Positions 5,632 through 10,758 of a stretch of 35,618 nt of DNA are shown piece after piece. Below the pieces are notes generated by a model that worked only from the letters and a program-made list of their open reading frames with translations, was not told the DNA's origin and ran no database searches. Origin of the DNA: a virus; IMG/VR virus record IMGVR_UViG_3300035670_000731, positions 1 to 35,618 of that record; one strand, 5' to 3'. A program made the translations under genes and the position numbers. Each line of letters begins with the position of its first letter. The first letter of the stretch is position 1.

Positions 5632-5850
5632 TTAATTAATATCCCAAGTTTCATCGCACTTATCACAAGCGTTAAATACTTCTTTATGAAATACTGGTTC
5701 GCCGGTTGCACTAGCGCTCCAAGTGTTTGATTCGCTTTCTTCAGCTCCGGTGTGGTTGCACCATTCCATTTGGAACTCTCCGTTGTCTATAAATCCACCT
5801 TGAACTGTGATTGCCTCATGACTTGGCACATAATTAATCTTTATGTTCAT
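5632..5850 (-). CDS. small protein with C-terminal CxxC, 72 aa
   Basis: First gene of the whiB operon. I chose ATG at 5850 because the AGAAAGGACAAT leader shared by early genes sits immediately before it; a longer frame to 5928 would run through the promoter. The product begins MNIKINYVPSHEAI, has a beta-like middle and ends ACDKCDETWDIN, with a CxxC and one more Cys (EWCNHTG) that could bind metal. No family is recognised. Transcription is expected from 5876-5904. Confidence 0.7.
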   Translation of the reverse strand: MNIKINYVPSHEAITVQGGFIDNGEFQMEWCNHTGAEESESNTWSASATGEPVFHKEVFNACDKCDETWDIN

Positions 5851-5875
5851 ATTGTCCTTTCTTTTAAGTATTAGT

Positions 5876-5904
5876 ATTTTACACCATAAGCAACTTGCGT
5901 TCAA
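5876..5904 (-). promoter_or_regulatory. early-type promoter for whiB operon
   Basis: Minus-strand TTGAAC (5904-5899), 17-bp spacer and TAAAAT (5881-5876). The spacer contains TGCTTATG at the same distance from the -10 as in the promoter at 9144-9172. The start of the first gene is about 25 nt downstream. It lies back to back with the plus-strand promoter at 5914-5942. Confidence 0.65.
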
Positions 5905-5913
5905 GCTATTTTG

Positions 5914-5942
5914 TTGTAATTTATCCACAGTCTTGGTATAAT
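5914..5942 (+). promoter_or_regulatory. plus-strand promoter for predicted small RNA
   Basis: TTGTAA (5914-5919), 17-bp spacer and a perfect TATAAT (5937-5942). The predicted start is near 5949, only about 60 nt before a terminator hairpin, so the product would be a short RNA. It is divergent from the promoter at 5876-5904, and the two may compete or be co-regulated. Confidence 0.6.
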
Positions 5943-5948
5943 TTCGCC

Positions 5949-6012
5949 ATAGCAGCCCCAGTTTGGATTGTCCTTTCTAACTCTCCTACACTAATGGGGC
6001 TGTTTTATTTTG
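5949..6012 (+). ncRNA. predicted anti-Shine-Dalgarno small RNA
   Basis: A short transcript is predicted from the promoter at 5914-5942. The 8-bp stem CAGCCCCA (5953-5960) / TGGGGCTG (5995-6002), followed by TTTTATTTT, is an intrinsic terminator with a 34-nt loop. Loop bases 5963-5978 match 8953-8968 exactly (16 nt), meaning the RNA is antisense to the ribosome-binding leader of the gene at 8603. The loop is also antisense to the leaders before 9114 (14 nt), 5850 (12 nt) and 7125 (11 nt). A second pyrimidine tract, CTCTCCT, is also anti-SD-like. The sequence match is certain; expression and regulation are inferred. The alternative is a bare terminator containing a decayed copy of the leader. 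Confidence 0.5.
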
Positions 6013-6027
6013 CTTTTAAATTGGTTG

Positions 6028-6122
6028 TATAATAAAAAAGGCTACTGTGTGATGCGCAGTAGTAGAACCTAAGAAAACAAACACATAAATCTCATTACGG
6101 GGTGGTCTCATGAAGCCACCCC
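6028..6122 (+). promoter_or_regulatory. promoter -10 and two-hairpin leader of basic mini-protein operon
   Basis: TATAAT lies at 6028-6033, but the -35 region is only T-rich. The RNA would start near 6040 and fold at once: CTACTGTGT (6042-6050) pairs with GCGCAGTAG (6054-6062) over 9 bp including GU pairs. A second hairpin pairs GGGGTGG (6099-6105) with CCACCCC (6116-6122), without a U run, so it is not a terminator. A 5' hairpin of this kind often stabilises mRNA. Bases 5851-6154 hold no gene other than the small-RNA unit. Confidence 0.5.
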
Positions 6123-6154
6123 ATCCCCTACAAGTAACTATGAAAGGAAATAAT

Positions 6155-6247
6155 ATGCCTAAGGTAGGTAAAAAGAAATTCCCATACACTAAACTTGGTA
6201 AGAAACTAGCTTCAATGTACAAGAAAAAGATGGGCAAGAAGAAGTAA
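6155..6247 (+). CDS. lysine-rich mini-protein, 30 aa
   Basis: A 30-codon frame starting at ATG 6155 behind GAAAGG, with 13 Lys among 30 residues (begins MPKVGKKKFPYTKLGKK). An in-frame ATG at 6140 lies before the ribosome-binding site and is less likely. Its TAA overlaps the next ATG (ATGA chain). I recognise no family; such a peptide would bind nucleic acid or membranes electrostatically. It is first of four coupled basic genes on the plus strand. Confidence 0.6.
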   Translation: MPKVGKKKFPYTKLGKKLASMYKKKMGKKK

Positions 6248-6402
6248 TGAAAGCAATCTGGGACAAGAAACGCCCAAAGAGTTTAGGTAAGAGCAAGAAG
6301 TTAACTGCTGCTCAGAAGTCTAAAGCTAAAGCAATGGCTAAGAAAGCTGGTCGCCCATATCCTAATCTTCTAGATAATATGAGAGCAGCGAGAAAGAAAT
6401 GA
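6247..6402 (+). CDS. basic mini-protein with GRPYPN motif, 51 aa
   Basis: A 51-aa protein with 14 Lys and 4 Arg. The second half, [19 protein letters not shown], resembles a short conserved segment I associate with small basic proteins of many tailed phages. A helical Lys/Ala stretch (LTAAQKSKAKAMAKKAG) precedes it. The start overlaps the previous stop and its TGA overlaps the next ATG, so translation is coupled. Function is unknown; DNA or RNA binding is plausible from charge alone. Confidence 0.7.
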   Translation: MKAIWDKKRPKSLGKSKKLTAAQKSKAKAMAKKAGRPYPNLLDNMRAARKK

Positions 6403-6668
6403 TAAAGCGGGGTAAAGAATCATTCTCCGGCTATAACAAGCCAAAGAGAACACCATCACACCCGACTAAGTCACACGCTGTGTTGGCTAAGCAGGGTGAG
6501 AACATCAAGCTGATCAGATTTGGTCAGCAAGGTGTCAAGGGTGCAGGTTCTAACCCCAAGACTGCTGCGCAAAAAGCTAGGCAGAAATCATTTAAGGCAC
6601 GACACGCTAGCAATATTAAAAAAGGTAAGATGTCAGCAGCCTATTGGGCGGACAGGGAGAAATGGTAA
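6399..6668 (+). CDS. conserved basic phage protein, 89 aa
   Basis: An 89-aa strongly basic protein. The pattern [20 protein letters not shown], then [13 protein letters not shown], then [18 protein letters not shown] looks like a compact protein conserved across phages rather than random basic sequence. The ordered middle ([11 protein letters not shown]) looks like beta strands, and the Trp/Tyr-containing end is typical of the family as I remember it. Its function is unknown; a virion or DNA-associated role is possible. ATGA overlaps at both ends place it in the four-gene operon. Confidence 0.75.
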
Positions 6669-6805
6669 TGCCACTAAAAAAAGGTTATGGAAAGAAAACA
6701 ATCAGCTCTAACATTCGTAAAGAAATGAAGTCTGGTAAACCACAGAAACAAGCAGTTGCTATTGCGCTTTCAATGGCACGCAAGTTCAAACGTAAAAAGA
6801 AATAA
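6668..6805 (+). CDS. DUF6496-like basic mini-protein, 45 aa
   Basis: A 45-aa protein starting [20 protein letters not shown] and containing [17 protein letters not shown]. The [21 protein letters not shown] pattern matches the DUF6496 family of very small phage proteins as I know it. It likely forms two short helices with a basic tail (KFKRKKK). It is the last gene of the plus-strand cassette and is followed by a terminator. Function is not known. Confidence 0.75.
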
Positions 6806-6882: not shown

Positions 6883-7125
6883 CTACTGTATTGTTCTGAC
6901 TTTGATTATCAAGAAGAATACCACCACGAATGCGAAGCCACCCCTAAAGTCATCTACTAGCATAGGTGTTATTGACATAATCCCTAGTGCTGCAAGAAAC
7001 CCTAGTGCTGCAAGCGACATCCAAGGTAATAGATGATCGTCTGCCCAGTTAGAAAACCGGTGCTTCCTTGTGCTTTTTATTAGTCTTTTTGCTGTCCCAA
7101 TTTCTTTTGGGTCTAGTAAGTCCAT
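6883..7125 (-). CDS. small two-helix membrane protein
   Basis: An 80-aa protein with a charged N-terminal part (LDPKEIGTAKRLIKSTRKHR) and two hydrophobic segments, roughly residues 35-53 (MSLAALGFLAALGIMSI) and 61-75 (GGFAFVVVFFLIIKV). It is expected in the inner membrane. It is last in the early operon but has its own early-type promoter inside the end of the exonuclease gene and the shared AGAAAGGACA leader. A role in host takeover or superinfection exclusion is possible but unproven; a holin is less likely so far from the lysis genes. Confidence 0.7.
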   Translation of the reverse strand: MDLLDPKEIGTAKRLIKSTRKHRFSNWADDHLLPWMSLAALGFLAALGIMSITPMLVDDFRGGFAFVVVFFLIIKVRTIQ

Positions 7126-7158
7126 AATTTTTGTCCTTTCTTTTTTATGGTACTTACA

Positions 7159-7187
7159 ATGTTAGCATAAGCACGTTATAAAGTCAA
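7159..7187 (-). promoter_or_regulatory. internal early promoter for membrane protein gene
   Basis: Minus-strand TTGACT (7187-7182), 17-bp spacer and TAACAT (7164-7159) preceded by TGC. The spacer carries TGCTTATG, as in the promoters at 9144 and 5876, but shifted 2 bp toward the -10. It lies across the 3' end of the exonuclease gene. Confidence 0.55.
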
Positions 7188-7745
7188 TCCATCCTCCAAG
7201 TGTTTTATTAGATTCCTGTGGATAACTTCGTCTTTTGGTATGTTTATCACCTTAAAAGCCTGTTTCGGCTCTAAGTCTGGGTTGTATAGCACTAGATCGC
7301 AAGAGTCTAACTCGCATATCAGCATTTGCATTTGCACCTGTGCCATAACTTCTGGTGGAATATCTCCTAGTGAAACTCTAATGTGTTTGTCTGCACCAAA
7401 GCATTTAACTTCAATCAGCTTGTCCCCTACGATTCCGTCGGGACTTGCCCCGGCATTTGGGTATTTAGGGTTAGTTACAAAGCCGACTGTCAGTATCTCA
7501 ATGTTGTCGTGTGTTCTGTGATAAATCTCTAGAGCTTCTGGCTCTAAGTCCTTGCCACGCTGCATTGCCCTGTTAGTAGGCACTGGCTTTTGCTCTGTGG
7601 CTTCTTTATAGCCCTTTTCAAGCATTTTCCAGGCATTACTGGCTGTGACACGCCCCTTACGTAATTCAAACCATTCTGGGCTGTTCTGTGCGCAATTATG
7701 AATTGTAGGCGTTGACGATTTCGTCTTTCTTTTCTTCTGACGCAT
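7176..7745 (-). CDS. YqaJ-like phage recombination exonuclease
   Basis: A 189-aa nuclease of the YqaJ/lambda exonuclease fold, expected to resect double-stranded DNA ends for recombination. Early motif QNSPEWFELRKGRVTAS is the YqaJ entry signature. The active site is visible as GASPDG (metal-binding Asp) and LIEVKC (Glu-x-Lys). EVMAQVQMQMLICE forms the conserved helix behind it. It starts at ATG 7745 with strong AGGAGG and overlaps the preceding gene by 50 nt in another frame. That gene is a likely annealing partner, forming a Red-like pair. Confidence 0.92.
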   Translation of the reverse strand: MRQKKRKTKSSTPTIHNCAQNSPEWFELRKGRVTASNAWKMLEKGYKEATEQKPVPTNRAMQRGKDLEPEALEIYHRTHDNIEILTVGFVTNPKYPNAGASPDGIVGDKLIEVKCFGADKHIRVSLGDIPPEVMAQVQMQMLICELDSCDLVLYNPDLEPKQAFKVINIPKDEVIHRNLIKHLEDGLTL

Positions 7746-8602: not shown

Positions 8603-8953
8603 TTAGTTTCCTTTCTTGTTAGTACGCCACATTACATATTCTGTCTCAGTTTTCTCAACGCCTTTAGGTAATTCGCCGTAAAGCTTTTCGTAGTTGCCAA
8701 TCTTGGTAGTATCAAGGCTGGTCTTGAGCATTGTAGTAGGCACTTCGTTAACGTTGCCCTTGTAGTTTGGACGCTTAACTAGGCTGATTGAGTAGTTATC
8801 ATTCTTAATAGAAACTATGTCGTGCTGTTTCATAGCTTCAAATAGCTCGGCTTTTAGATCAGCTTCTGCTTGTTCTAGTTGTTTCTGCAGCTCGATAGTA
8901 GCAAGTAGTTTGCGTTCTATCTGTGCAGGTAGTGAATTAGTTGTTAGTGTCAT
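8603..8953 (-). CDS. hypothetical early protein, 116 aa
   Basis: First full gene of the early operon. Residues about 10-48 form a long amphipathic helix or coiled coil (QIERKLLATIELQKQLEQ), followed by a short beta region (DIVSIKNDNYSISLVKR) and a Tyr/Lys-rich C-terminus. This order resembles small phage proteins with an N-terminal coiled coil and a compact beta domain, but I cannot name the family. ATG 8953 follows the shared AGAAAGGACAATCC leader, which matches the predicted small RNA loop at 5963-5978 over 16 nt. Confidence 0.7.
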   Translation of the reverse strand: MTLTTNSLPAQIERKLLATIELQKQLEQAEADLKAELFEAMKQHDIVSIKNDNYSISLVKRPNYKGNVNEVPTTMLKTSLDTTKIGNYEKLYGELPKGVEKTETEYVMWRTNKKGN

Positions 8954-9137
8954 TGGATTGTCCTTTCTTTATTGTGATACATCGGTAAGGCTCATTTAGA
9001 TTCTGCCATTGCTGGGAGCGGGGTTACACCGCAAGTCAGGTAAGTCTCGCACGAACCCGACTATAATCTTTGATGCCCTACTGGCGTACCACAATTTTGT
9101 AATATGCTTGCCAAGTGATTGTCCTTTCTACTTGACT
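8954..9137 (-). promoter_or_regulatory. long structured leader of early operon, with possible leader peptides
   Basis: About 180 nt of leader separate the early promoter from the first gene. Visible structure on the minus strand: AGTCGGGT (9062-9055) pairs with ACCTGACT (9041-9034) over 8 bp with one GU, and GCGG pairs with CCGC within 9018-9032. A possible 18-codon GTG frame (9052-8996, MRDLPDLRCNPAPSNGRI) and a pair of very short overlapping frames follow. A ribosome-binding site recurs at both ends of the leader. It may be a riboswitch-like or attenuation region; I match it to no known class. Confidence 0.45.
9061..9114 (-). CDS. possible 17-aa leader peptide
   Basis: A TTG start at 9114 lies 7 nt after AGAAAGGA, within the first 25 nt of the predicted early transcript, and gives 17 codons ending TAG (MASILQNCGTPVGHQRL). 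The good spacing to a strong ribosome-binding site is the only support. It could be a regulatory leader peptide or merely a second ribosome entry site. Confidence 0.3.
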   Translation of the reverse strand: MASILQNCGTPVGHQRL

Positions 9138-9143
9138 ATAACC

Positions 9144-9172
9144 ATAGTACAGCATAAGCAAGATAATGTCAA
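9144..9172 (-). promoter_or_regulatory. strong early promoter for recombination operon
   Basis: Minus-strand perfect TTGACA (9172-9167), 17-bp spacer and TACTAT (9149-9144). The spacer contains TGCTTATGCTG, shared with the promoter at 5876-5904. It faces away from the plus-strand genes starting at 9612. This is the best sigma70-type promoter in the window. Confidence 0.75.
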
Positions 9173-9208
9173 GTATAGTTTTTGCTAAACCTGTGGATAA
9201 CTTTAACT

Positions 9209-10272: not shown

Positions 10273-10758
10273 ATGAATAGTAAAGCAAAAGACATACCTA
10301 AAGCAATTATAAAAGGTGATGTAGCTTACATACCACTTGTTGGTAAAAGAGGTGGTTATGCAATAGTAGATAAAGAAAACTCTTGGATAGATATGTATAG
10401 TTGGTCGCAAAACATAAAAGGATATCCACAATCTTATATAAATAAAAAAACAATAAAAATGCACGCTTTTTTGTTTGGTACTGAAATTGGTTTAGTTAAT
10501 GACCATATAAATAGAAATAAATTAGATAACCGTAAAAACAATATTCGCAAAACTTCCTATACTATAAATAGCAGAAACGTTAGTTTAGCTAGTAATAATA
10601 AGTCTGGAAGAACAGGTGTTAACTGGGATAAAGGTTACAAAAGATGGCAGGCTCGCATAAGTGTTAACCGTCATATTATCAAATTAGGATATTTCGAAAA
10701 TAAAGAAGACGCTATAAAAGCTAGGCAGGAAGCAGAAACGAAATATTGGAAAGACTAA
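10273..10758 (+). CDS. HNH homing endonuclease with AP2 domain
   Basis: Free-standing homing endonuclease, 161 aa. Residues about 70-98 form an HNH core (VNDHINRNKLDNRKNNIRKT) with the usual DH, N and N residues, followed by N-rich linker. Residues about 112-161 form an AP2-type DNA-binding domain (SGRTGVNWDKGYKRWQARI...LGYFENKEDAIKARQEAE). The same architecture occurs in the gene at 33309. It is more AT-rich than its neighbours and lies on the plus strand convergent with and touching the next gene, consistent with recent insertion. Confidence 0.88.
   Translation: MNSKAKDIPKAIIKGDVAYIPLVGKRGGYAIVDKENSWIDMYSWSQNIKGYPQSYINKKTIKMHAFLFGTEIGLVNDHINRNKLDNRKNNIRKTSYTINSRNVSLASNNKSGRTGVNWDKGYKRWQARISVNRHIIKLGYFENKEDAIKARQEAETKYWKD

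What the first reader, a model, noticed from the sequence alone, without database searches (positions are those of the whole stretch)
5912..6012. Candidate phage small RNA that is antisense to the ribosome-binding leaders of early genes
Seen directly: a plus-strand promoter (TTGTAA, 17 bp, TATAAT) is followed within 60 nt by a terminator hairpin. The 34-nt loop carries the exact reverse complement of the SD leaders of several minus-strand early genes: 16 nt against the gene at 8603, 14 nt against the entry site before 9114, 12 nt against 5850 and 11 nt against 7125. Established: small RNAs that pair with Shine-Dalgarno sequences block translation. Inference: this RNA would silence a whole set of early genes at once through their shared leader, a switch I do not know from phages of this type. 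A second pyrimidine tract in the loop could hit further SDs.
Basis: partly seen in the sequence, partly recalled or inferred. Interest (0 to 1): 0.78.

Follow-up and report, generated by a model that had tools for sequence, protein, structure and literature searches.

The report
Phage small RNA matching its own leaders
A freshwater actinobacterial virus appears to make a tiny hairpin RNA whose loop mirrors the ribosome-landing sequences at the front of its own transcripts, and the loop and those sequences have changed together in two related viruses, as expected if the RNA switches those genes off by base pairing.

Summary
A plus-strand promoter (5914-5942) is followed by one 7-bp GC hairpin with a long loop and a T-tail (to 6012). 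The loop holds exact complements of four minus-strand leaders (16, 14, 12 and 11 nt). Two related phages carry the same unit at the same place. In each genome the 9-mer AGAAAGGAC occurs only in these leaders and, antisense, in the loop. Outside the 9-mer the loop flanks match their own phage's leaders better than those of the other two phages (per-genome p about 0.002-0.005). Among 111 long-loop terminator hairpins tested, these three rank 1-3 for complementarity to leaders.

Corrections: pairing is strongest at the two sites on the recombination-gene transcript (8960, 9121) and weak at 7133. The 9121 site is not a conserved gene's ribosome site; it borders a 139-nt covarying RNA absent from Rfam. 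One promoter leads into whiB, NinG-like and terminase genes, so "early" is inferred. Each target promoter also carries a DnaA-box sequence; one box lies inside the sRNA promoter.

Best reading: a trans-acting antisense sRNA blocking ribosome entry. RNA production and repression are not shown. Only three lineages.

The parts
5914..5942 (+). promoter of the candidate sRNA (TTGTAA-17-TATAAT)
   Evidence: found again in both relatives by a strict scan and alignment
5921..5929 (+). DnaA-box sequence TTATCCACA, inside the spacer of the sRNA promoter and upstream of the divergent promoter at 5904-5876
   Evidence: conserved in all three phages
5949..6012 (+). candidate sRNA of about 60 nt; 5' end inferred from the -10 box
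5953..6002 (+). terminator hairpin, stem CAGCCCC/GGGGCTG, 34-36-nt loop; stem invariant in three phages
5963..5978 (+). antisense segment of the loop, TTGGATTGTCCTTTCT
5851..5862 (-). target leader 1 (12 nt), SD of gene 5632-5850; that transcript reads on into whiB, ninG and terminase
7131..7141 (-). target leader 2 (11 nt), SD of gene 6883-7125; weakest predicted pairing (-16.0 kcal/mol)
8953..8968 (-). target leader 3 (16 nt), SD of gene 8603-8953 (Gp157-like), first gene of the recombination transcript; strongest pairing (-25.9)
9117..9130 (-). target site 4 (14 nt), 5' end of the same transcript; no conserved ORF follows
8969..9107 (-). covarying structured leader RNA between target sites 4 and 3 (44 pairs, 14 with changes on both sides in three phages), no Rfam match
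5876..5904 (-). promoter of transcript with leader 1 (TTGAAC-17-TAAAAT, GCTTATG in spacer)
7159..7187 (-). promoter of transcript with leader 2 (TTGACT-17-TAACAT, GCTTATG in spacer)
9144..9172 (-). promoter of transcript with sites 3 and 4 (TTGACA-17-TACTAT, GCTTATG in spacer)
7217..7225 (-). DnaA-box sequence upstream of promoter 7187-7159
9192..9200 (-). DnaA-box sequence upstream of promoter 9172-9144

Best explanation
The unit encodes a trans-acting antisense small RNA of about 60 nt. Its own promoter and intrinsic terminator produce one hairpin. The large loop carries GUCCUUUCU plus phage-specific flanks, which pair with AGAAAGGAC leaders at or near the ribosome-binding sites of the phage's own transcripts. 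Pairing would cover the Shine-Dalgarno sequence and block 30S binding. The main target is the transcript of the recombination genes (8603 to 7176), which has two sites; the other two transcripts are weaker targets. Shown by comparison: the unit, its conservation, and loop-leader covariation. Inferred: transcription, pairing, repression and timing. The DnaA-box sequence lies between the -35 and -10 of the sRNA promoter and upstream of the divergent promoter. One protein could therefore hold the sRNA off while the target promoters fire; this is speculation.
For: Promoter, stem, T-tail and GTCCTTTCT are conserved in three lineages while flanking sequence diverges. No ORF is conserved in it, and in relative B the hairpin stands directly before a convergent gene, so it is not an attenuator. 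AGAAAGGAC occurs in W 5, B 5 and C 4 times: the leaders plus one antisense copy in the loop, nothing else; AGAAAGGAG, the better anti-SD match, occurs 0 times. C's fourth leader reads AGAAAGGGC, which still pairs by G-U. Flank matches own versus other phages: W 4.25 vs 2.0/1.75, B 2.75 vs 1.25/1.0, C 4.5 vs 3.0/1.5; p 0.0047, 0.0045, 0.0019 against random genomic flanks. Mean duplex energies are also best within own genome: -21.7, -21.2, -19.8. Of 111 long-loop terminator hairpins in 76 other loci and the three genomes, these rank 1-3 for complementarity to leaders. Background: the hairpin pattern gave 6 viral hits, all from this clade, and 14 in 257 Gb of cellular genomes, scattered over unrelated phyla.
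Against: No expression data. Only three lineages, so the covariation rests on few independent changes. The SD core must resemble the loop because the actinobacterial 16S tail is CCUCCUUUCU (from general knowledge). Pairing with 7133 and its B homologue is weak. Duplex energies ignore loop geometry. In cluster K mycobacteriophages, which have a superficially similar hairpin, the loop changes in some phages while the leaders do not, so such a look-alike can exist without being maintained.
Confidence: 0.6

Rival explanations
1. AGAAAGGAC is a double-stranded DNA operator bound by a phage or host protein just downstream of each promoter; the copy in the hairpin is the same operator in the other orientation, and no RNA pairing occurs.
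For: Sites lie 14-18 nt after the -10 box at three promoters and 28 nt after the sRNA -10, all next to shared promoter elements.
Against: Site 8960 lies more than 150 nt from the promoter and occupies the SD position in W and B; C's variant there keeps RNA pairing by G-U. The antisense copy sits in the loop of a conserved terminator stem. Flanks differ from leader to leader within one phage.
Confidence: 0.13
2. The loop is a mimic of the 16S rRNA 3' tail that binds Shine-Dalgarno sequences of host mRNAs in general, to shut off or bias host translation; the phage leaders match only because they are good SDs.
For: UCCUUUCU equals the end of the actinobacterial 16S tail (general knowledge).
Against: The G of GUCCUUUCU, opposite the invariant C of AGAAAGGAC, does not fit the ideal SD AGAAAGGAGG; loop flanks follow the phage's own leaders. 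The host is not identified, so host targets could not be tested.
Confidence: 0.1
3. The RNA pairs with the leaders but activates or protects the mRNAs, or the leaders act as sponges for the RNA whose real target lies elsewhere.
For: Site 9121 is not an SD of a conserved gene and sits at a 5' end beside a structured leader, where pairing could also shield the mRNA end or alter the fold.
Against: In W and B the other three sites are at SD positions, where pairing normally blocks ribosomes.
Confidence: 0.1
4. Coincidence or relic: an inverted copy of an early leader that happened to land between two stem arms of an ordinary terminator.
For: About 0.3% of equal-length windows have a repeat as long.
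Against: Ranks 1-3 of 111 hairpins; conserved promoter; co-variation in three lineages.
Confidence: 0.07

Closest known systems
c4 RNA of phages P1/P7 and sar RNA of P22 (review PMC12197685)
   Same: phage-encoded RNA that blocks translation of a phage mRNA at its ribosome-binding site; in c4 the complementary segments likely lie in loops
   Different: they act on one ant mRNA and control lysogeny; here three transcripts share one leader, the RNA has its own promoter and terminator, and no integrase or repressor turned up among the proteins searched (not every ORF was scanned)
6C/B11 sRNA of mycobacteria (PMC10470900)
   Same: actinobacterial sRNA whose C-rich loops pair with 5' UTRs of several mRNAs
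   Different: chromosomal host gene, two C6-7 loops on G-tracts; here one loop with a specific 9-16-nt antisense
LhrC of Listeria (PMC4132741)
   Same: CU-rich terminator loop takes part in pairing over a Shine-Dalgarno region
   Different: multicopy host sRNA with several redundant sites
T4 RegA translational repressor (PMC3014915)
   Same: one phage regulator competing with ribosomes at many phage mRNAs
   Different: RegA is a protein; this would be an RNA counterpart
Start-Associated Sequences of cluster K mycobacteriophages and Microbacterium cluster EF phages (PMC3203893, PMC7302621)
   Same: repeated extended SD leaders in actinophages; EF consensus GGGAAAGGACCCC shares AAAGGAC; in K1 phages the one antisense copy sits in a hairpin loop
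   Different: no promoter or T-tail seen at that K hairpin; in several other K phages the loop differs while SAS stays; no antisense copy found in EF phage AnnaSerena

Membership tests
trans-acting antisense sRNA (general class) | free-standing promoter and terminator, no ORF | tested here: met
trans-acting antisense sRNA (general class) | single-stranded seed complementary to mRNAs encoded elsewhere, maintained by covariation | tested here: met
   three lineages only
trans-acting antisense sRNA (general class) | transcript made and repression demonstrated | not testable with these tools
   needs RNA-seq and reporters
c4 / sar-type phage antisense RNA | sequence/structure family membership | tested here: not met
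   no Rfam family reached the gathering score; best weak match ctRNA_p42d, E 1.6
c4 / sar-type phage antisense RNA | target is an antirepressor gene controlling lysogeny | tested here: not met
   genes at the target sites are Gp157-like/YqaJ recombination genes and small genes ahead of whiB and terminase
6C sRNA family | two C-rich hairpin loops | tested here: not met
   single hairpin, no C6 tract; no Rfam match
Start-Associated Sequences of actinophages | non-SD positions conserved in a repeated leader | tested here: met
   invariant C after AGAAAGGA, 14 of 14 exact copies in three phages
Start-Associated Sequences of actinophages | same sequence as the K or EF consensus | tested here: not met
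   AGAAAGGAC against GGGATAGGAGCCC / GGGAAAGGACCCC

The most novel reading that the evidence does not exclude
Some actinophages tag several of their own transcripts with one extended Shine-Dalgarno leader and make a single small hairpin RNA against it, an RNA counterpart of RegA. Here it is wired through a shared DnaA-box so that target promoters and sRNA alternate, and it acts on a two-site structured leader. The same logic might explain the unexplained Start-Associated Sequences of other actinophages.
Probability: 0.2. Interest if true: 0.85.

Novelty: new variant of a known kind. Interest (0 to 1): 0.64.

Why it matters
Phage RNAs that block one mRNA are known. I found none in the held papers that acts on a shared leader across several transcripts of its own phage, though most subscription papers could not be searched. 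If true, it gives a simple RNA switch in phages of abundant freshwater actinobacteria, and a testable idea for the repeated start-associated leaders described in 2011 and 2020 whose function is unknown.

Tried and rejected
Rfam: no family for the sRNA or the structured leader. Attenuator of the plus-strand basic-protein genes: rejected because relative B lacks them there. More distant relatives: 80 TerL loci, most 57-72% identical, and L019 (78% in one protein) lack both the hairpin and AGAAAGGAC leaders, so they add no test. L024 was a chance pattern hit. Hairpin pattern in cellular genomes: 14 scattered hits, none from a named actinobacterium. Cultured phages: no close relative. Cluster K hairpin as proof of a general mechanism: rejected, since the loop is not maintained in all K phages. 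The first run of the hairpin-leader comparison counted self-overlaps and was replaced. KU886271 and KU886273 are not held.

Full report
What was checked. The window is a 35.6-kb virus record with a 127-nt terminal repeat. It encodes a WhiB-like protein, a marker of actinophages (PMC10202952), so the host is probably an actinobacterium; the exact host is not known. AGAAAGGAC occurs five times where 0.41 is expected, in four leaders and antisense in the loop.

Relatives. Two other complete-length records, B (IMGVR_UViG_3300008266_000220) and C (IMGVR_UViG_3300025732_000133), and several fragments carry the same unit beside the homologue of gene 5632. In the alignment the TTATCCACAG-TATAAT block, the stem, the T-tail and TGTCCTTTCT are kept while most other positions vary. 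The plus-strand genes downstream in the window are missing there in B, so the unit stands alone.

Leaders. In B the 9-mer occurs four times in leaders and once in the loop; in C three times plus once in the loop, with a fourth leader AGAAAGGGC that still pairs by G-U. AGAAAGGAG, which would fit the 16S tail better, is absent from all three genomes. The leader is therefore more than a strong Shine-Dalgarno sequence.

Co-variation. Outside the shared 9-mer, each loop extends further into its own phage's leaders than into those of the other two; this holds for all three loops. Against flanks drawn from random genome positions, p is 0.0047, 0.0045 and 0.0019. Mean duplex energies show the same diagonal. 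Among 111 long-loop terminator hairpins from 76 other loci and the three genomes, these three have the longest leader complementarity (15, 14, 13 nt). In that test leaders are the 30 nt before an ATG, so the 16-nt match scores 15.

Targets. The best-pairing sites are 8960 and 9121 (B: 29107 and 29263; C: 6152, 9243 and 9016). The 5854 and 7133 leaders pair less well in W. Site 8960 is the SD of the first gene of the recombination transcript (Gp157-like, then YqaJ exonuclease). Site 9121 lies at the 5' end of the same transcript and precedes no conserved ORF. The 5854 transcript reads on to whiB, a ninG-like gene, terminase and portal, so 'early genes' is not established for all targets.

Structured leader. 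Between 9121 and 8960 lies a 139-nt element with 44 pairs. Of these, 14 show changes on both sides in only three sequences, against 4.7 in shuffles and 0-1 when the partner is slid. For that count a 66-nt insertion in C was left out. No Rfam family matches and it was not found outside this clade. It may be a riboswitch-like or ribosome-standby element; this was not part of the finding.

Promoters. Each of the three target promoters carries a DnaA-box sequence (TTATCCACA) upstream and GCTTATG in the spacer, in all three phages. TTATCCACA occurs five times in the window against 0.27 expected. At the sRNA the same box lies between -35 and -10, which allows a model in which one protein favours the target promoters and blocks the sRNA. 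This is inference.

Known systems. Phage c4, sar and OOP RNAs block single mRNAs (PMC12197685). Actinobacterial 6C/B11 and Listeria LhrC use pyrimidine-rich loops on 5' UTRs (PMC10470900, PMC4132741). T4 RegA is a protein that represses many phage mRNAs (PMC3014915). Start-Associated Sequences in cluster K and EF actinophages are repeated extended SD leaders of unknown function (PMC3203893, PMC7302621). Their discoverers noted one antisense copy in four K1 phages. I find it in the loop of a hairpin in Angelica, Anaya and CrimD and in three further phages with differing stems. In Fefferhead, Shandong1 and SirPhilip the loop differs while SAS is unchanged, and neither promoter nor T-tail was seen there. 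It is a lead, not a confirmation.

Verdict. Transcription, pairing and repression remain undemonstrated. I rate it a new variant of a known kind.

Noticed in passing
window 8969-9107, minus strand (also L020:6189-6327, L018:8903-9107): A 139-nt covarying structured RNA leader with no Rfam match, flanked on both sides by AGAAAGGAC; conserved loop GUGCGAGACUU.
   Followed up: partly
L118:33635-33647, L119:34871-34883, L120:33836-33848: In cluster K1 mycobacteriophages the single antisense Start-Associated Sequence sits in the loop of a long hairpin (loop CCTCCTATCC); also in Validus, Niklas and SgtBeansprout, but lost in Fefferhead, Shandong1 and SirPhilip although their SAS are unchanged.
   Followed up: partly
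window 5921-5929, 7217-7225, 9192-9200: DnaA-box sequences at all three target promoters, conserved in two relatives, together with GCTTATG in each promoter spacer.
   Followed up: partly
window 6110-6805, plus strand: Cluster of small very basic proteins downstream of the sRNA; absent there in relative B, where homologues of two of them lie elsewhere.
   Followed up: no
window 10273-10758, plus strand: Weak HNH endonuclease match (below cut-off), possibly a homing endonuclease.
   Followed up: no
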